Assembly (NCBI GenBank): GCA_003104905.1
Contig: PQAS01000055.1
Location: 107,610 to 171,609 of the forward strand
DNA length: 64,000 nucleotides
Direction: 5' to 3'
DNA from: Candidatus Methanoperedentaceae archaeon
GTDB lineage: Archaea > Halobacteriota > Methanosarcinia > Methanosarcinales > Methanoperedenaceae
Part shown: positions 40,555 to 57,889 of the stretch, piece after piece
Layout of the letters: each line of letters starts with the position of its first letter
Position numbering within the stretch: the first letter of the stretch is position 1
Translations under genes and position numbers: made by a program
The notes under the pieces: model-generated
The model's input: only the letters and a program-made list of their open reading frames with translations
What the model was told of the DNA's origin: nothing
Databases searched by the model: none

Positions 40555-41628
40555 ATGATGGTACAAAAGAAGGAGATACTTAAGATTTTAGGTGGATACG
40601 ATTTAGAGAACATAGCTATTGCTACGGTTTGTTCACATAGCAGCCTGCAGATTTTCGATGGTGCAAGAAAGGAAGGTTTCAAGACCATCGGGATCAGCGT
40701 CGGGTCACCGCCAAAATTCTATGATGCTTTCCCGAAGGCAAAGCCGGATGAATTTTTCATTGTGAAGGATTATAAAGAGATCCTCTCAAAAACAAAAGAA
40801 CTGGCGGCAAAAAATGCCATCATAATCCCGCATGGTTCTTTTGTGGAATATCTCGGCCCTGAAAATTTTCAGTCGCTGCGCCTTCCCACATATGGTAACC
40901 GAAGCGTGCTTGAATGGGAATCAGACAGGGACATGAGCCGCAGGTGGCTGGAATCCGCAGGCATAAAAATGCCGCGCCAGATAAAGAATCCTGAGGACAT
41001 AGATTCTCCCATGATGGTCAAATATTATGGTGCAAAAGGCGGAATGGGATTTTTTGTGGTCAAAAATTATTCGGATTTCCAGAAAAGGATAAATCCCGCT
41101 GAAAAATTCACCATCCAGGAATTCGTTCTGGGAACACGTTATTACATGCATTATTTCTATTCACCGATTAAGCAGGATGGATATAAACTAAGCAGGGGAT
41201 CACTTGAACTGCTTGGCATTGACAGGCGAGTTGAATCAAATGCTGATGAGATATTCAGGATCGGTTCACCAACAGAGCTGGCAGAAGCCGGTATTTATCC
41301 GACTTTTGTGGTGACAGGGAACCTGCCTCTTATGATAAGAGAATCACTTCTCCCCAAGATCTTTGAAATGGGAGAGAGGGTAGTGGAAAAATCGATTGGT
41401 TTGTTCGGGGGTATGATTGGCCCATTCTGCCTCGAAACAGTTGTTACGGATGCGCTTGAATTGAAAGTTTTTGAAATATCGGCCCGCATTGTTGCAGGAA
41501 CAAACCTGTTCATTTCAGGTTCGCCATATTCTGACCTGGTGGATGAGAACCTCTCGATGGGGCGGCGTATAGCGCGCGAGATCAAAGTTGCACGGGAAAG
41601 GAATGAGCTCTCGGAAGTAATATCATGA
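40555..41628 (+). CDS. purP: FAICAR synthetase (formate-dependent), PurP
   Basis: The archaeal ATP-grasp enzyme adds formate to AICAR in purine synthesis, replacing the bacterial PurH step. The 357 residues include TVCSHSSLQIFDGARKEGF, IIPHGSFVEYLG, PTYGNRSVLEWESDR, VKYYGAKGGMGFF and EISARIVAGTNLF. It overlaps the FAD dehydrogenase gene by four bases. PurP-like paralogues exist, so this copy could be a relative, but the motifs are canonical. Confidence 0.92.
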   Translation: MMVQKKEILKILGGYDLENIAIATVCSHSSLQIFDGARKEGFKTIGISVGSPPKFYDAFPKAKPDEFFIVKDYKEILSKTKELAAKNAIIIPHGSFVEYLGPENFQSLRLPTYGNRSVLEWESDRDMSRRWLESAGIKMPRQIKNPEDIDSPMMVKYYGAKGGMGFFVVKNYSDFQKRINPAEKFTIQEFVLGTRYYMHYFYSPIKQDGYKLSRGSLELLGIDRRVESNADEIFRIGSPTELAEAGIYPTFVVTGNLPLMIRESLLPKIFEMGERVVEKSIGLFGGMIGPFCLETVVTDALELKVFEISARIVAGTNLFISGSPYSDLVDENLSMGRRIAREIKVARERNELSEVIS

Positions 41629-43010
41629 TGCAAAAAAAAGAATATGATGTCATTATCGTAGGTGCAGGACCTGCGGGAATGTTTGCAGCCAATGAACTTG
41701 CCGGGAAGATGACAGTTCTTGTCATAGACATGGGCCGTGATATCAATGAGCGCGAATGCAAAATGAAGCGGCGTGGAATATGCACTCACTGCGACCCATG
41801 CGATATTATGTGCGGTGTGGGAGGTGCGGGAACGTATTCTGACGGGACGCTGAATCTTCGTCCGGACATCGGGGGGGATCTTGCCGAGCAGACCCAGGAC
41901 CCGGAATATGCATGGGAGCTTGTTGATTTTGTGGATAAGATATTCCTTAAATATGGTGCTCCCGATCATCTTTATATTCCAAAAGGTGACGAGGTTGAGC
42001 AATTAAAGCGCAGGGCGGCATCAGTAGGCGCGCGGTTTATCGAAATCATCCAGAGACATATCGGGTCAGATAATGCGCCTATAGTCATCGAAAATTTTGA
42101 GAAGGATATGAAAGAGAAAGGTGTTGAGTTCCTTCTTGATGTGAAAGTAGAGGACTTGATTATCGAAGAAAATACCTGCACGGGTGTAATATTAAAAGAT
42201 AATATTAAGGTAAATTCCCGCTTTACGATCATAGCTCCGGGAAGAGTGGGGGCAAAATGGATCGATGAGATCCTGCATAAACACAAAATTGAAGCAAAAT
42301 ATGCACCCATCGATGTGGGGGTGAGGGTTGAAGTCCCCTCAATAATAATGGATCCGATAACTTACATAAACCATGATCCCAAATTCCATATCCAGACCAA
42401 GACCTATGATGATTTTGTGAGGACTTTTTGTACCAATGAGAAAGGATTTGTTGTAAAGGAAGAATATGAGGATTTCATTGCCACAAATGGTCATTCAATG
42501 ACGAACGAGCAATCCGATAATACGAATTTCGCTTTCCTTGTGAGGGTCGAACTTACTGAACCCATCGAGAATACCGTGCGCTATGGAAGATCAATTGCTA
42601 AGCTGGCAACGACTATCGGCGGCGGAAAGCCGGTTCTCCAGAGGATGGGGGACCTGAGGCGCGGGAGGCGAAGCACCCAGAAAAGACTTAAGAAGAACCA
42701 GGTAATAAATACACTGAAGGATGTGACTCCCGGTGATATATCCATGGCCCTGCCGCATCGCATAGTGACTGATATAAGGGAAGGGCTTGAGGTACTCAAT
42801 GAAATTATTCCTGGGGTTGCTGCGGATTCCACACTTCTGTATGCGCCTGAGATAAAGTTCTATTCGATGCAGGTAATCGTGGATACCAACATGGAATCAA
42901 GCGTCAGGAACCTTTTTGCAGCGGGTGATGGGGCAGGACTTTCAAGGGATATTGTAAATGCTGCAGCCACAGGTGTAATTGCAGGAAGAGGGATATTGAA
43001 GAAGATGTGA
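41625..43010 (+). CDS. FAD-dependent dehydrogenase (COG2509 type)
   Basis: The 461-residue flavoprotein has an N-terminal FAD site (VIIVGAGPAGMFAANELAG). A Cys-containing segment CTHCDPCDIMCGVGGAGTYSD follows, and the C-terminal FAD loop is AGDGAGLSRDIVNAAATG. This matches the uncharacterised FAD dehydrogenase family of archaea and bacteria. The CxxCxxC suggests an Fe-S or thiol centre near the flavin. It is translationally coupled to purP, though no metabolic link is known. Confidence 0.82.
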   Translation: MMQKKEYDVIIVGAGPAGMFAANELAGKMTVLVIDMGRDINERECKMKRRGICTHCDPCDIMCGVGGAGTYSDGTLNLRPDIGGDLAEQTQDPEYAWELVDFVDKIFLKYGAPDHLYIPKGDEVEQLKRRAASVGARFIEIIQRHIGSDNAPIVIENFEKDMKEKGVEFLLDVKVEDLIIEENTCTGVILKDNIKVNSRFTIIAPGRVGAKWIDEILHKHKIEAKYAPIDVGVRVEVPSIIMDPITYINHDPKFHIQTKTYDDFVRTFCTNEKGFVVKEEYEDFIATNGHSMTNEQSDNTNFAFLVRVELTEPIENTVRYGRSIAKLATTIGGGKPVLQRMGDLRRGRRSTQKRLKKNQVINTLKDVTPGDISMALPHRIVTDIREGLEVLNEIIPGVAADSTLLYAPEIKFYSMQVIVDTNMESSVRNLFAAGDGAGLSRDIVNAAATGVIAGRGILKKM

Positions 43011-43118: not shown

Positions 43119-43976
43119 ATGGCTGAGTCCAATGAATTCGAGAAATATTGCATTCAGACGCTTGAAATACATTTCGGGCAATTGGCGGGCGGAATTGTAA
43201 ATAAGATAAAAATAAAGAAAAGCCTGAATGAAAAATCAAATATCAGCGATCTGAAAGAGTTTATAGACCTTATTGAAATCAATATTAGTATACTGGCCGG
43301 AAAAAATAAAGCTAACGAAATTGGAAATACATTGAGGAGCAAAGCCCTTGATTATGATGGGAAACAGAAAAAATCCGGAAGTGTCCTTACCAGTGATATG
43401 GAAAAAGAAATAGATACTTTCCTGGTGAAAAATTCATTACCCACGGAAAAAGATGTTGCAGAGTATACAAAATACCTGACATTAAAATACGGCGGCATAG
43501 CTAAGAATGTGGAAAAAGAGATAATAGAAAAAATTAAAATCCATATAAAGAAGACAATAAGCCATAAAAGGGTAAAAGAGGAAATTAACGATTTACTCAT
43601 AAGATTCCATGAGCCCACCAAAAATGATATTGATGATTTCATAAATTATATTCGTCTCTCAAAGCTGGATTTTCAGGAAGATGAACTGAGGGATGAAATT
43701 GAAAAAGAGAGGCTCTACAGAAAATTCCACGGTCCGCAGGATACTGCAATGCCTTCCGAAATTAATGAACTTGTAAATTTGATTAAAAATACGAACAATA
43801 ATGATGCCCTCAGCAAAAAATTGCGAAAACAGGAACTCAGCTATCTTATCAAAGATGAATCAGGAATTTCCGATAAATCAGTGTCTGAATTCGTAAACCT
43901 CATGACACCTTCTGAGGAGGATACAAAAGATACGCTTGAGGGACTGGGCCTGAAACATCTGATCCATGAAAAATAA
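43119..43976 (+). CDS. Helical protein, paralogue A of an unknown four-gene cluster
   Basis: The 285-residue soluble protein is almost entirely charged helices. An N-terminal domain of about 80 residues (FGQLAGGIVNKIKIKKSLN, then LAGKNKANEIGNTLRSK) is followed by further helical units. One unit ends DEIEKERLYRKF near residue 205. The same order and the same EIEKER motif occur in the last gene of the cluster, so the two are paralogues over about 200 residues. No enzyme motif or membrane segment is present. First of four same-strand genes with gaps of 1-30 bases. Confidence 0.7.
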   Translation: MAESNEFEKYCIQTLEIHFGQLAGGIVNKIKIKKSLNEKSNISDLKEFIDLIEINISILAGKNKANEIGNTLRSKALDYDGKQKKSGSVLTSDMEKEIDTFLVKNSLPTEKDVAEYTKYLTLKYGGIAKNVEKEIIEKIKIHIKKTISHKRVKEEINDLLIRFHEPTKNDIDDFINYIRLSKLDFQEDELRDEIEKERLYRKFHGPQDTAMPSEINELVNLIKNTNNNDALSKKLRKQELSYLIKDESGISDKSVSEFVNLMTPSEEDTKDTLEGLGLKHLIHEK

Positions 43977-44002
43977 ATTATTGATCACCTGGAGAAAATC
44001 AA

Positions 44003-44743
44003 ATGACAAAAATCCAAAATGAATCCAGGAAAAAAAATGGTGGGCAGAAAAAAACAAAAGGCTTTACGAATACCCGGGAAATTGAAGAATCCAAACACGG
44101 GAAAAAACCGAGCAAAAAAAAACTAAAGATTACAAAAAAGCAAAAGACAAATATCGAAAATAACTTTCCTGAAAAGAATAAAGTTGTTGAAGTTGTCGAA
44201 AAACCTGCAGCAGAAATTCCTCAAAACGTGATTTCAAATCCTCTGGAAAAACTGGTCGAACCAAATGGTATACGATTAAAGGAAAATCCAATTACTGCAT
44301 CGAACCGTTTTTTTTATATTGCTCCAAGAACAAATTATTTTATAATAGTATCTATTATCTCAATAATAATATTCATGGTTGCAGGATATTTTTTACCTGC
44401 CACGCAAGAAGATATAGTTAATAACAAAGTGATCTGGGCTGGTGATGGGAATTATAACAGGGGACTTTTCGATCAATTCTTTACATCGATAGCTTTCACC
44501 TCAGGCGTATTCTTGCTGGGTTATTATATAAATACAACTTTTATAAAATTAAATGTGAAAAATTGGGGTTTTTTTGCATCCGGAATCTTAATGATGTTCA
44601 TTTTTGGCTTAGGAAAGATAGGAGAATTAATATTTAATAATAAAATATTTGATTATACAAAGGATTTTGTCCTTCCCATTGCATTGATAATGATGGCTTA
44701 TTCATCCTACAAAATTCATAAAGATCTGGACGGGATCATATAA
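44003..44743 (+). CDS. Four-helix membrane protein with Lys-rich N-terminus
   Basis: The first 100 or so of 246 residues are very basic and low in complexity (KKPSKKKLKITKKQKT), likely cytoplasmic and able to bind nucleic acid or lipid heads. Four membrane segments follow: YFIIVSIISIIIFMVAGYFL, FFTSIAFTSGVFLLGYYI, WGFFASGILMMFIFGLGKI and FVLPIALIMMAYSSYKI. No family recognised. It lies 26 bases after the helical paralogue A and two bases before the next membrane gene. Confidence 0.68.
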   Translation: MTKIQNESRKKNGGQKKTKGFTNTREIEESKHGKKPSKKKLKITKKQKTNIENNFPEKNKVVEVVEKPAAEIPQNVISNPLEKLVEPNGIRLKENPITASNRFFYIAPRTNYFIIVSIISIIIFMVAGYFLPATQEDIVNNKVIWAGDGNYNRGLFDQFFTSIAFTSGVFLLGYYINTTFIKLNVKNWGFFASGILMMFIFGLGKIGELIFNNKIFDYTKDFVLPIALIMMAYSSYKIHKDLDGII

Positions 44744-44744
44744 T

Positions 44745-45050
44745 ATGGATATTAACAGTTGTTTGCTACTTTTATCAATAATAAATTTCGTGGCTGTGTT
44801 GTTATGTGTTTATTATGGAAAGAAATTATACGATTCAACCAGAGGGGCTGCAGATTTTTGGTTATTCCTTTCTGCTTTTATTTTCAGTCTCGGAGGATAT
44901 ATCATGTTTGATTTCGTTAGAAAATCAATTGTTGCATTTGATTCTCCAATTATGGCCGCACAGGATCTGACCATTACATTTGCAGCCATATTTGCACTTG
45001 TAGCTGCGATCTATATAAAAAAAATGTTTGATAACATGCTCGGAGAATAG
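44745..45050 (+). CDS. Three-helix membrane protein, 101 residues
   Basis: The three hydrophobic segments are CLLLLSIINFVAVLLCVYYG, FWLFLSAFIFSLGGYIMF and ITFAAIFALVAAIYI. The arrangement resembles the membrane sensor part of archaeal histidine kinases but lacks any kinase domain. It begins two bases after the preceding membrane gene and is probably made with it as a complex. Confidence 0.66.
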   Translation: MDINSCLLLLSIINFVAVLLCVYYGKKLYDSTRGAADFWLFLSAFIFSLGGYIMFDFVRKSIVAFDSPIMAAQDLTITFAAIFALVAAIYIKKMFDNMLGE

Positions 45051-45080
45051 AGTTATATGATATTTTACCAGTGAGGATAA

Positions 45081-45857
45081 ATGCCTGCAGATTCCCTGAA
45101 CATTGTCAAAAATTTTCTTGAAACAAATATTGGCGATCTGGGTATCATAATTTTCCGGAAATCAGTTGAAAAATTGAATATAGGTGCAAACCCTTCCAAA
45201 AATGAAATTGAGAATCTGGTCCTATCAGTGGAAAAGACCATAGCAAAACTGTATGGTGAAAAAAAATCCCGATCCATTTTTGATAAGTTGAGAAAAGAAT
45301 TAATTGAATATGATACTTTTTTTGATCGATTTTTCGGATCAAAGATCGAAGACACACTAAATAATTTTTTTGAGATGAAAGGAATTCCCAGGGGCACCGA
45401 GATACAGGAAATTGCCATGTTCTTGATCTCAAACGGATGCCAGGAAAGCGAGAAAAAGCTTATTGAAACTTTAAAACAACTCACAAAGTTGAGGATTATT
45501 CACGATTTGAAAGGAAGCATATTAAATTCAGAGATCAAATCATTTCTTGATAAGAACTCACAATATTCCGAATCGGATATTGAAATTTTTATTAATGAAA
45601 TGAAGAAGAAGAAACTCGAAATAAATGATATTGACCTGAAAGATAAAATTGAAAAAGAAAGGCTTTTTAGAAAATTCAATTATATGGAACGTAAGGAGGA
45701 TGAAGAAGAAAAAATCGTCAACCAATATGTGGCATTGTTCAATTCCAAATTAAAAAAAGAATATGAATATATTACTTCTGATACGGATATAATTTCATTA
45801 ATGAAGAAAAACCATTACCTTTACTTATATTTCAAAAGATATTCAATTAATCTTTGA
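45081..45857 (+). CDS. Helical protein, paralogue B of the four-gene cluster
   Basis: The 258 residues align end to end with paralogue A. The N-terminal domain (NFLETNIGDLGIIIFRKSV, then KLYGEKKSRSIFDKLRKEL) is followed by the middle helices and the shared motif DKIEKERLFRKF near residue 195. The C-terminal part differs and is rich in Tyr and Lys. Soluble, with no catalytic motif. Fourth gene of the cluster. Confidence 0.7.
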   Translation: MPADSLNIVKNFLETNIGDLGIIIFRKSVEKLNIGANPSKNEIENLVLSVEKTIAKLYGEKKSRSIFDKLRKELIEYDTFFDRFFGSKIEDTLNNFFEMKGIPRGTEIQEIAMFLISNGCQESEKKLIETLKQLTKLRIIHDLKGSILNSEIKSFLDKNSQYSESDIEIFINEMKKKKLEINDIDLKDKIEKERLFRKFNYMERKEDEEEKIVNQYVALFNSKLKKEYEYITSDTDIISLMKKNHYLYLYFKRYSINL

Positions 45858-45901
45858 ACCATTAGATTAATTTTAATATGCTCAAAACAAATTGAACTGC
45901 T

Positions 45902-47302
45902 ATGTCCTGCGAAAATTTTACAGAAAAATTTGATGAGTATAAAAAAATCAGGAAACAGAAAAAATTATTCGGAACATTCGGGTTCCGGGGAGTGGTAAAT
46001 GAGGGGATGGGGCCCGAAAAAGCAAAACGCACAGGCGCTGCTCTTGCTGATTATCTCGGTGAAGAAAAAACAATCGCTATAGGGAAAGATCCCCGGATAT
46101 CCTCACCCATGCTTGAAGAAGCATTAATCGAAGGGATAATAGAGCATGGCTGCAATGCATTGACACTCGGTATCATCACCCCCAACACACTTTCACTTGA
46201 AGTGGGAAGACAGGCCGATGCAGGTGTAATGATCACAGCGTCACATAATCCTCCTGAATATAATGGCATGAAATGTTTAAATAAAACCGGTATGGGTTTC
46301 TCACCGGAAGAAGACCTGGCCCTTGAAAAAATATATTTCGGTGATTTGAAACAAATCACCAGAAAGGGGAAAATGATCACTGACACAGGAGCCAGCGACA
46401 GATATCGCGCTCATATTGTTCGGTATGTAACCAGAATGTTCCCTGTCACGCCAATGAAAATAGTAGTTGATGGCGGGGGCGGATCAGCATCCACAGTCAC
46501 ACCTGAGACACTTGTTGCTCTCGGTCATAAAGTTGTAAGATTCAACTGTAAATATGACGGCATGTTCCGGGAGAGGAATCCAGAACCAATAGATGCAAAC
46601 CTTGAAAAACTCAAGAAACTTGTAGTCGCCCAGGGCGCGGATATGGGTGTTGCTCATGACGGCGATGGCGATAGGACTGCTTTTGTGGACGAAAATGGGA
46701 AATTCGTCCAGGGCGACGTGTCTGCTTCAATATTGGCCGACCATATACTGAGACAGAGTAAAGATAAAGATAAGAAGATAGCAGTGACCATTGCCTTCTC
46801 AAATCTCATAAGAGATGTAGCAGGGAAACTGGGGGCCGAAGTGATTTTCACACCGGTTGGTGAGCCTTATCTTGCGCAGGCAAAACTCTTATGCGGCGCC
46901 CAGGTAGGCCTGGAAGAGCATGGCTCTGTGCTTATCGATTGGAGCCGTGAGGGACCGATGCTTGCCGGAGTTATGGCAGGTATACTATCAAAAGTAGAAA
47001 TGACCTTTTCAGAACTTGTAAATTCCTATCCCAAATATCACCAGATTAAAGATGCCAAGACGCTCCCCGGGGGAACAAATACGGATGTCATACTTGAGAA
47101 GCTAAAAACACAGATCCCCGGGGATTATGATAGGATCTCTGATATGGATGGCGTGCGTGTGGACTACCCGGATGGCTGGTTCCTTGTAAGGGCAAGCGGG
47201 ACAGAGCCAAAGGTGAGGGTATTTTCGGAAGGAAGGACCGGGGATATTGCTCTGCGCTTGAACCGGATAGCGATGGAAGGGCTCAATAGGGCCATGGAAT
47301 AG
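45902..47302 (+). CDS. glmM: Phosphohexomutase (phosphoglucosamine/phosphomannomutase)
   Basis: This alpha-D-phosphohexomutase has the catalytic serine loop ITASHNPPEYNGMK, the Mg loop GDGDRTAFVDENG, the sugar-binding EEHGSVL and the phosphate-binding RASGTEPKVRV. All four are intact in 466 residues. It could act on glucosamine-6-P, mannose-6-P or glucose-6-P; archaeal members often have broad use. The symbol is therefore tentative. Confidence 0.88.
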   Translation: MSCENFTEKFDEYKKIRKQKKLFGTFGFRGVVNEGMGPEKAKRTGAALADYLGEEKTIAIGKDPRISSPMLEEALIEGIIEHGCNALTLGIITPNTLSLEVGRQADAGVMITASHNPPEYNGMKCLNKTGMGFSPEEDLALEKIYFGDLKQITRKGKMITDTGASDRYRAHIVRYVTRMFPVTPMKIVVDGGGGSASTVTPETLVALGHKVVRFNCKYDGMFRERNPEPIDANLEKLKKLVVAQGADMGVAHDGDGDRTAFVDENGKFVQGDVSASILADHILRQSKDKDKKIAVTIAFSNLIRDVAGKLGAEVIFTPVGEPYLAQAKLLCGAQVGLEEHGSVLIDWSREGPMLAGVMAGILSKVEMTFSELVNSYPKYHQIKDAKTLPGGTNTDVILEKLKTQIPGDYDRISDMDGVRVDYPDGWFLVRASGTEPKVRVFSEGRTGDIALRLNRIAMEGLNRAME

Positions 47303-47304
47303 GA

Positions 47305-47706
47305 TCAATATCCCGTCAATTTCACGGGCTTTACACCATCTTCCCAGACATAAGCCCTCATACCGTCAGCTCCTGCAATAAGCCACACTGACGGTGCATT
47401 TTCCATTGTTTCCCTGTCCCATGTCGAGGGTATGGCGCAAGAAGATGGATGCGAGTGATAAACTCCAAGTATCTCCTTTCCATATTTCTCTGCATCGTTC
47501 CATGCACTATAGAATTGTTCCGGGTCAAGTTCAAAACTTCTCGTGGTGCGTTTCACATTCCTGACAGGAAGCACTTTTTCAACATTTGCTATATTCCCGT
47601 TGATATTCCCGATCAACACACCACAGGCTTCATACGGCTTATTGGATTCAAGTTCCATCTGGATGAGTTCCATGTCATTGCTGGAGATTTTGAGTTCAAG
47701 GATCAT
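47305..47706 (-). CDS. JAMM/MPN-domain metalloprotease
   Basis: The 133-residue protein has the complete JAMM zinc motif HSHPSSCAIPSTWD with the upstream Glu in YEACGVLIG. Stand-alone archaeal JAMM proteins (HvJAMM1 type) remove ubiquitin-like SAMPs from targets; others act in sulfur-carrier processing. It converges on the phosphohexomutase with a two-base gap. Confidence 0.88.
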   Translation of the reverse strand: MILELKISSNDMELIQMELESNKPYEACGVLIGNINGNIANVEKVLPVRNVKRTTRSFELDPEQFYSAWNDAEKYGKEILGVYHSHPSSCAIPSTWDRETMENAPSVWLIAGADGMRAYVWEDGVKPVKLTGY

Positions 47707-47850: not shown

Positions 47851-48468
47851 ATGAGTGATAAAGATTCGAAAGCTCCTATTTATATAGCGATCGTGGTGGC
47901 CGTCATCCTGATTGCAGCCGGTGGTTATTATGTACTGGGTGGCAAAATTACCCCCCCGGCAGTACCTGATGATGAAAAACAAAACCCTTCTGTAACAACA
48001 GCCAAAGAAACATCGGTAGCCCCAAAAATAACCCCTGAGAAAATAACAGCATCAGCACAAACCCCGGCTGTTACACCAGCTCCGGCAAAAGTTGAAACTA
48101 TCAAATGTGAATTATGTCATAAAGATTCTCAAGATCTGACGCCTCATTTAAATGGAGGGAAGCTTTGCGTAACCTGTCACGGAAGCCAGGTACATAATAT
48201 CCATATTGGGACAGGCACAGTAGGCCTTGAATGTAATACCTGTCATGGATCCCCGCCGAAAATACCAACCGTTGATAAATCTGCAGATGGACCGGGTCAT
48301 TTTTCAGTTTGTGAAAATTGCCATGCTCCTCCGCCAGATTCACTTAAACCCAGCCTTGGCAACCTCATAACAGTTCACCTTTCCAGAGGCAAGTACTGTA
48401 CCAATTGCCATGGAACTGACATCAGCGTCATTCACGCCGCAAGCCTGGCAAATGCATCTAAAAAATAA
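47851..48468 (+). CDS. Membrane-anchored pentaheme cytochrome c
   Basis: The 205 residues start with a membrane helix (APIYIAIVVAVILIAAGGYYVL). A Pro/Thr/Lys linker follows, then five CxxCH sites: CELCH, CVTCH, CNTCH, CENCH, CTNCH. A sixth His-rich segment may give distal ligands. The heme domain would face outside. It probably relays electrons from the membrane towards the cell surface, as expected for an anaerobic methane oxidiser. It is monocistronic, with its own TATA region (near 47806) and terminator. Confidence 0.88.
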   Translation: MSDKDSKAPIYIAIVVAVILIAAGGYYVLGGKITPPAVPDDEKQNPSVTTAKETSVAPKITPEKITASAQTPAVTPAPAKVETIKCELCHKDSQDLTPHLNGGKLCVTCHGSQVHNIHIGTGTVGLECNTCHGSPPKIPTVDKSADGPGHFSVCENCHAPPPDSLKPSLGNLITVHLSRGKYCTNCHGTDISVIHAASLANASKK

Positions 48469-57799: not shown

Positions 57800-57889
57800 G
57801 GGCGCGTGGCCTAGTCTGGATAGGGCGGCAGCCTCCTAAATAAGATCGGAGTCAGCTGTAGGTCGGGGGTTCGAATCCCCCCGCGCCCG
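57800..57889 (+). tRNA. tRNA-Arg (anticodon CCT) with a 15-base intron
   Basis: The acceptor stem GGGCGCG/CGCGCCC, a D stem GCCT/GGGC, and the T arm GGGGG-TTCGAAT-CCCCC fold cleanly, with discriminator G and no encoded CCA. The anticodon stem GCAGC/GCTGT is interrupted after the loop bases CTCCTA by 15 bases, AATAAGATCGGAGTC (57839-57853). The intron forms a bulge-helix-bulge: CTCC pairs with GGAG, flanked by three-base bulges. The cuts are therefore at the usual 37/38 site. Anticodon at 57835-57837 reads AGG codons. Confidence 0.93.

What the first reader, a model, noticed from the sequence alone, without database searches (positions are those of the whole stretch)
43119..45857. Unrecognised four-gene cluster: two paralogous helical proteins flank two membrane proteins
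Seen: four same-strand genes with gaps of 1-30 bases. The first and last products align colinearly over about 200 residues, sharing an N-terminal domain ending LRSK/LRKEL and the motif EIEKERL-x-RKF. The two between have four and three membrane helices; one has a 100-residue Lys-rich head. None has a catalytic motif I know. Inference: duplication around a membrane pair suggests a hetero-oligomeric membrane complex with two related cytoplasmic subunits. This is the window's best candidate for an undescribed system.
Basis: partly seen in the sequence, partly recalled or inferred. Interest (0 to 1): 0.65.

Follow-up and report, generated by a model that had tools for sequence, protein, structure and literature searches.

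The report
Pilus-linked archaeal membrane accessory module
Four unnamed genes in a methane-oxidising archaeon encode two related helical proteins around a pair of membrane proteins; the helical proteins share a domain with the motor ATPase of archaeal type IV pili and in many relatives sit beside the pilus genes, so they are probably an undescribed accessory or control unit of that machine.

Summary
The four genes A, M1, M2 and B are real, and A and B are paralogues (BLASTP 3e-13; profile-profile 8e-32). None meets a Pfam or NCBIfam cut-off. The full A-M1-M2-B order recurs in seven genomes of Ca. Methanoperedens. In nine relatives, spanning two genera, A (with or without M1-M2-B) lies on one side of a type IV pilus (T4P) assembly locus MinD / small TM protein / PilB / PilC, mostly directly divergent from minD.

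The middle of A and B holds a helical motif (two copies in A, one clear copy in B). The same motif forms the N-terminus of that locus's PilB ATPase; whole-genome searches find the match in both directions. PilB of the window's own clade has lost this segment.

The M1-M2 pair is older than A and B: in two other families of the order it sits in an invariant operon, Roadblock protein / probable Roadblock-helical protein / M1 / M2. Roadblock proteins are often encoded in archaeal T4P loci (PMC4858521).

My reading: an undescribed membrane-anchored accessory or regulatory module of the archaeal adhesion-type T4P, in which A/B replaced a Roadblock pair. The pilus link rests on domain sharing and synteny. 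Function, complex formation and contact with PilB are inferred. In the window itself the cluster lies away from the pilus genes.

The parts
43119..43976 (+). Gene A: 285-aa all-helical cytoplasmic protein
   Evidence: ORF; paralogue of B; relatives in 21 of 33 searched Methanoperedenaceae genomes; AlphaFold2 pLDDT 81.5, all helical; dN/dS 0.17-0.19
43119..43370 (+). A residues 1-84: N-terminal helical domain shared with B
   Evidence: A vs B domain hhalign 98.9%, E=1.6e-17; weak resemblance to the C-terminal domain of n1
43380..43556 (+). A residues 88-146: repeat 1 of the PilB-N-like motif
   Evidence: repeat 1 vs repeat 2 hhalign 96.7%, E=4.5e-10; repeat 1 vs PilB-N 93%, E=3.4e-7
43557..43736 (+). 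A residues 147-206: repeat 2, the best match to PilB N-termini, ends IEKERLYRKF
   Evidence: hhalign to PilB-N 96.3%, E=1.8e-9, best of 100 column shuffles E=0.0027; hmmsearch finds PilB N-termini as best out-of-family hits
43758..43973 (+). A residues 214-285: C-terminal region, also found at the end of HEAT-repeat-like proteins of the genus
   Evidence: A profile hits to L064, L065, L068, L069; weak HEAT_2 match of L064
44003..44743 (+). Gene M1: Lys-rich disordered head (residues 1 to about 109) followed by four membrane helices
   Evidence: AlphaFold2 helices and pLDDT; head charge; co-occurs with M2 in 20 genomes; head absent in M1 of loci without B
44745..45050 (+). Gene M2: 101-aa protein with three membrane segments
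   Evidence: hydropathy; conserved family, Methanoperedenaceae members 51-81% identical except G032 at 33%; class-wide and phylum-wide searches
45081..45857 (+). Gene B: 258-aa paralogue of A with a divergent C-terminus
   Evidence: B clade separate from A with 100/100 support; dN/dS about 0.10
45519..45680 (+). B residues 147-200: the clear copy of the PilB-N-like motif, ends IEKERLFRKF
   Evidence: A repeat-2 profile hit 2.7e-13; B alignment vs PilB-N hhalign 92.4%, E=5e-7

Best explanation
A-M1-M2-B is a membrane-anchored accessory or regulatory module of the archaeal adhesion-type (PilB3-like) type IV pilus in Methanoperedenaceae. M1 and M2 form the conserved membrane platform. A and B are paralogous cytoplasmic adaptors, probably acting as a pair, that carry the same helical motif as the PilB N-terminus. 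They would bring the PilB/PilC motor, or the partner that PilB's N-terminus docks to, onto the platform, or compete for that dock, and so set where or when pili are assembled together with the MinD ATPase encoded next door in relatives. Shown: the genes, the A/B paralogy, the M1-M2 pairing, the motif shared with PilB, the synteny with the pilus locus, and an older operon in which Roadblock-type proteins hold the place of A/B. Inferred: complex formation, docking or competition, and the regulatory role.
For: Motif sharing: A vs PilB-N hhalign 94%, E=1.2e-7, B vs PilB-N 92%, E=5e-7; repeat 2 vs PilB-N E=1.8e-9 against a best of 0.0027 in 100 shuffles. The whole-genome search with the A profile hit PilB N-termini of three genomes at 4e-6, 4e-5 and 2e-4 (identified as PilB), and the reverse search with the PilB-N profile hit A/B proteins of many genomes. 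Synteny: A divergent from MinD with PilB/PilC beyond it in eight loci (L034, L035, L037, L039, L040, L042, L047, L050; two of them cut by contig ends) and close to it in L045, including another genus. M1-M2 inseparable. The older operon carries a Roadblock protein, and Roadblock and MinD-type proteins recur in archaeal T4P loci (PMC4858521).
Against: In the window and three sister genomes the cluster is not next to the pilus locus, and their PilB lacks the shared N-terminal segment. Many Methanoperedens with the pilus locus lack A. A paralogues occur next to unrelated genes (KaiC-like, TctA, lipoate ligase). The Roadblock-M1-M2 operons of other families are not next to pilus genes. No structure match.
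Confidence: 0.45

Rival explanations
1. A general membrane signalling module of Roadblock type (regulating a small GTPase or another NTPase), not specific to pili. A/B use a generic helical protein-interaction motif that PilB also happens to carry.
For: M1-M2 sit with Roadblock proteins away from pilus genes in two families; A paralogues lie beside KaiC-like and metabolic genes; zinc-ribbon proteins also carry the motif.
Against: The same motif is in PilB and the A genes lie beside that very PilB locus in nine relatives; no GTPase gene was noticed beside the module.
Confidence: 0.3
2. A lineage-specific structural part of the T4P base itself: M1-M2 as platform subunits next to PilC, and A/B as extra stator-like subunits bound through the PilB-type motif.
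For: Divergent linkage to PilB/PilC and motif sharing.
Against: Absent from many relatives that have the PilC orthologue; patchy loss, for example only A in G018.
Confidence: 0.15
3. A mobile or defence cassette that moves between genomes.
For: GC falls to 31% at 44001-46000; the location varies between genomes.
Against: No credible PADLOC or PHROG match (one weak MTase_II hit at 0.0013 to a helical stretch is judged spurious). No viral contig encodes a relative. The A and B trees show the same close groupings.
Confidence: 0.05

Closest known systems
Archaeal type IV pilus assembly ATPase (PilB3-like; Pfam T2SSE, PilB3_N, PilB3_C)
   Same: A and B share its N-terminal helical motif of about 45 residues and A lies beside its gene in relatives.
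   Different: A and B have no ATPase domain; they repeat the motif and add an N-terminal domain of their own.
Roadblock/LC7 regulators of T4P polarity (MglB-type; PMC9481161) and Roadblock proteins in archaeal T4P loci (PMC4858521)
   Same: A Roadblock protein and a probable Roadblock-helical protein hold the place of A/B next to M1-M2 in other families.
   Different: A and B are all-helical and have no Roadblock match; no GTPase gene was noticed nearby.
FleN/MinD-type ATPases linked to archaeal pili and archaella (PMC4858521, PMC11588486)
   Same: A MinD/ParA-type gene is the divergent neighbour in the pilus-adjacent loci.
   Different: It is not part of the window cluster.
Archaellum accessory proteins (ArlC/D/E, ArlH)
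   Same: Cytoplasmic accessories of a T4P-like motor; some A paralogues have KaiC-like neighbours. Resemblance from general knowledge.
   Different: No archaellum domain matched in A, B, M1 or M2.

Membership tests
T4P-associated accessory module | Conserved gene linkage to T4P assembly genes | tested here: met
   Eight loci with A divergent from MinD of the PilB/PilC locus and one with three genes between; not so in the window and its three sister genomes
T4P-associated accessory module | Sequence relation to a T4P component | tested here: met
   Motif shared with the PilB N-terminus in both search directions and against shuffles
T4P-associated accessory module | Effect on pilus assembly or physical contact with the machine | not testable with these tools
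   Needs complex modelling, pull-downs or mutants
Core T4P machinery | Secretion ATPase, TadC/T2SSF or pilin domain in the four proteins | tested here: not met
   No such Pfam match in A, M1, M2 or B
Roadblock/LC7 | Robl_LC7 domain in A or B | tested here: not met
   No match; A is modelled all-helical. The n2 protein of the related operon does match
Archaellum accessory (ArlC/D/E) | Archaellum protein domain | tested here: not met
   No Pfam match up to E=1
Anti-phage defence system | Match to described defence proteins | tested here: not met
   PADLOC gave only two weak, implausible matches (MTase_II 0.0013, Csm3 0.063)

The most novel reading that the evidence does not exclude
An M1-M2 membrane platform, first run by Roadblock proteins and then in Methanoperedenaceae by A/B proteins that carry PilB's own N-terminal docking motif, is a previously unrecognised control or positioning system for the archaeal T4P motor.
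Probability: 0.35. Interest if true: 0.65.

Novelty: new variant of a known kind. Interest (0 to 1): 0.5.

Why it matters
Little is known about how assembly of archaeal type IV pili is regulated, and 56% of the T4P-linked proteins in a 2016 census were annotated as hypothetical or uncharacterised (PMC4858521). A conserved membrane pair plus soluble proteins that share the ATPase's N-terminal motif would give a concrete, testable set of candidate regulators. Methanoperedens are important methane oxidisers that form aggregates and use external electron acceptors, where surface filaments may matter (general knowledge; PMC12246660). The series Roadblock / Roadblock-like / M1 / M2, then both kinds in one genome (G032), then A-M1-M2-B, looks like one set of soluble partners being exchanged for another on a constant membrane platform.

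Tried and rejected
Pfam, NCBIfam, PADLOC and PHROG matches to A, M1, M2 and B: only sub-threshold or weak; Lig_C (0.028) and MTase_II (0.0013) judged chance hits to helical stretches. PDB sequence search with A and M2 profiles: nothing; with PilB-N: weak calmodulin hits (best 0.0051), judged chance helix-loop-helix similarity. Foldseek with the A and M1 models: nothing significant (best E 1.3 and 0.69). M1 vs M2 homology: not supported. Similarity between M1's Lys-rich head and the window's PilB head: suspected by eye, not supported (E=1.6). Charge pairing between M1's basic head and PilB's linker: linker charge ranges from +5 to -99, no rule. PilB-N loss as a marker of A replacing it: no consistent pattern. 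Viral origin: no relatives in viral contigs. In one search the hmmsearch part used incompatible options and is void; it was redone. The C-terminal domain of n1 as a relative of A/B's N-terminal domain: hits in both directions are weak (E about 0.02 to 0.5) and profile comparison does not support it, so it is kept only as a suggestion.

Full report
What is there. Four + strand genes at 43119-45857: A (285 aa), M1 (246 aa), M2 (101 aa), B (258 aa), gaps 26, 1 and 30 bases. The genome is a Ca. Methanoperedens (inference): the nearest A relatives are in Methanoperedens sp. RBG 1 (86%), BLZ2 (78%) and an uncultured archaeon LFW-24 (76%). A and B are paralogues (BLASTP 3e-13; profile-profile 8e-32) and form two separate, fully supported clades. 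All four genes are under purifying selection (dN/dS 0.10-0.34). No Pfam or NCBIfam family meets its cut-off.

Anatomy. AlphaFold2 gives A as an essentially all-helical protein (mean pLDDT 81.5, pTM 0.55) without a significant PDB match. By sequence A has an N-terminal domain (1-84) shared with B (98.9%), two repeats of a motif of about 45-60 residues (88-146 and 147-206; repeat against repeat E=4.5e-10) ending in IEKERLYRKF, and a C-terminal region also found at the end of HEAT-repeat-like proteins of the genus. B has the same layout with a different C-terminus; its first repeat is barely recognisable to the repeat profile. M1 has four membrane helices and a disordered, Lys-rich head. M2 has three hydrophobic segments.

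Distribution. A is found in 21 of the searched genomes of its family (19 of the genus, plus G031 and G032, not counting a C-terminal fragment in G021); elsewhere only pieces of it match. The order A-M1-M2-B recurs in G000, G004, G020, G002, G007, G005 and G009. In G031 A-M1-M2 stand without B; in G015 a further copy reads M1-M2-A. A-B stand together without M1-M2 in G030, G017 and G011, and are fused in another copy of G015 (L046). G018 keeps A alone. In G009 (Mnv1) A is interrupted by a stop.

The pilus link, part 1: neighbourhood. In G002, G005, G007, G008, G009, G012, G014 and G031 A is directly divergent from a MinD/ParA-type ATPase, which is followed in most by a 62-64 aa single-TM protein, a PilB3-like secretion ATPase and a TadC-like T2SSF protein (contig ends cut G002 and G014 short); in G015 three genes lie between A and minD. 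G031 is a different genus. A 235-aa membrane protein lies on the far side in several. In the window and in G004, G018 and G020 the cluster instead follows an FAD-dependent oxidoreductase, and the pilus locus is elsewhere (G000:C58). The A tree puts this clade beside pilus-adjacent G002, so I infer relocation in the window's lineage.

The pilus link, part 2: shared motif. The PilB proteins of these loci begin with a segment such as DIRERVRGFLAEFTSPGEEDIQRFLSDIESKNPSLD. Profile comparison with A gives 94-96% probability (E 1e-7 to 2e-9) and with B 92% (5e-7), against a best of E=0.0027 in 100 column-shuffled controls. In a search of 238 whole genomes with the A profile, three of the few extra hits are PilB N-termini. 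In the reverse search of 186 genomes, the PilB-N profile finds PilB, a zinc-ribbon protein of another family, and A/B family members from many genomes. The segment also occurs in PilB of other families of the order (G036, G042, G034), so it is probably older than A/B. It is missing from PilB of G000, G003, G004, G018 and G020, and also of G008 and G012.

The membrane pair is older. M1 and M2 co-occur in the same 20 genomes of the class, adjacent in the loci examined; one further weak M2-only match (G043, 4e-4) is not counted, and in G069 M1 is only a fragment. In two other families the pair sits in the same operon everywhere: n2 (about 110 aa), n1 (213-268 aa), M1, M2 (ten loci). n2 is a Roadblock/LC7 protein (PF03259 in 9 of 11 members, best 1.5e-6). 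n1's N-terminus resembles n2 (hhalign 40%, E=3e-4) and its C-terminus is a domain with only a weak resemblance to the N-terminal domain of A/B. G032, in the window's family, has n2-n1-M1-M2 and, divergently about 1.4 kb away, A (L052): an intermediate arrangement. In this family A/B have therefore taken the place of the Roadblock pair beside a constant membrane platform (inference). A search of 393 genomes spread over the phylum added only weak M2 matches in two genomes.

Mechanism, with status. Shown: gene reality, paralogy, pairing, shared motif, synteny, and a different soluble partner set in other families. Inferred: M1-M2 is a membrane platform; A and B act as a pair (adjacency and fusion); their repeats use the dock of the PilB N-terminus, either recruiting the motor or competing with it; the output is control of pilus assembly or position with MinD. 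Literature supports the setting: FleN/MinD ATPases and Roadblock proteins are recurrent companions of archaeal T4P loci (PMC4858521), Haloferax MinD2 affects archaellum assembly and positioning (PMC11588486), and a Roadblock protein controls polarity in Myxococcus, where it governs T4P-dependent motility (PMC9481161). Against: the window's own copy is not pilus-adjacent, many pilus-bearing relatives lack A, and A paralogues occur beside unrelated genes.

Verdict. I found no description of it in the papers searched, which cover openly licensed papers only.

Noticed in passing
L140, L141, L143; window 40555-43010: In a second family the n2-n1-M1-M2 operon lies about five genes from the same ATP-grasp (DUF1246/DUF1297) and FAD-dependent oxidoreductase pair that precedes the window cluster. 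Old synteny or coincidence is open.
   Followed up: partly
L152, L153: 360-aa zinc-ribbon proteins of another family carry two PilB-N-like segments and lie beside a GMP-synthase-like gene.
   Followed up: partly
L053, L056, L058; L057, L059: Longer A paralogues (312-319 aa) sit beside a KaiC-like ATPase, or between a TctA transporter and a lipoate ligase-like gene.
   Followed up: partly
L064, L065, L068, L069: Proteins with weak HEAT-like repeats end in the same C-terminal stretch as A.
   Followed up: partly
L050 (also fetched as L092) in the A gene: A is split by an in-frame stop in Ca. M. nitroreducens Mnv1 although M1, M2 and B are intact: recent loss or sequencing error.
   Followed up: no
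window 47851-48468: A 205-aa protein with one N-terminal membrane segment and several CxxCH haem motifs.
   Followed up: no
window 47305-47706 (-): A JAB/Mov34-type metalloprotease-like gene next to the glmM-like gene.
   Followed up: no
window 57800-57889: ARAGORN reports one tRNA with an undetermined anticodon.
   Followed up: no
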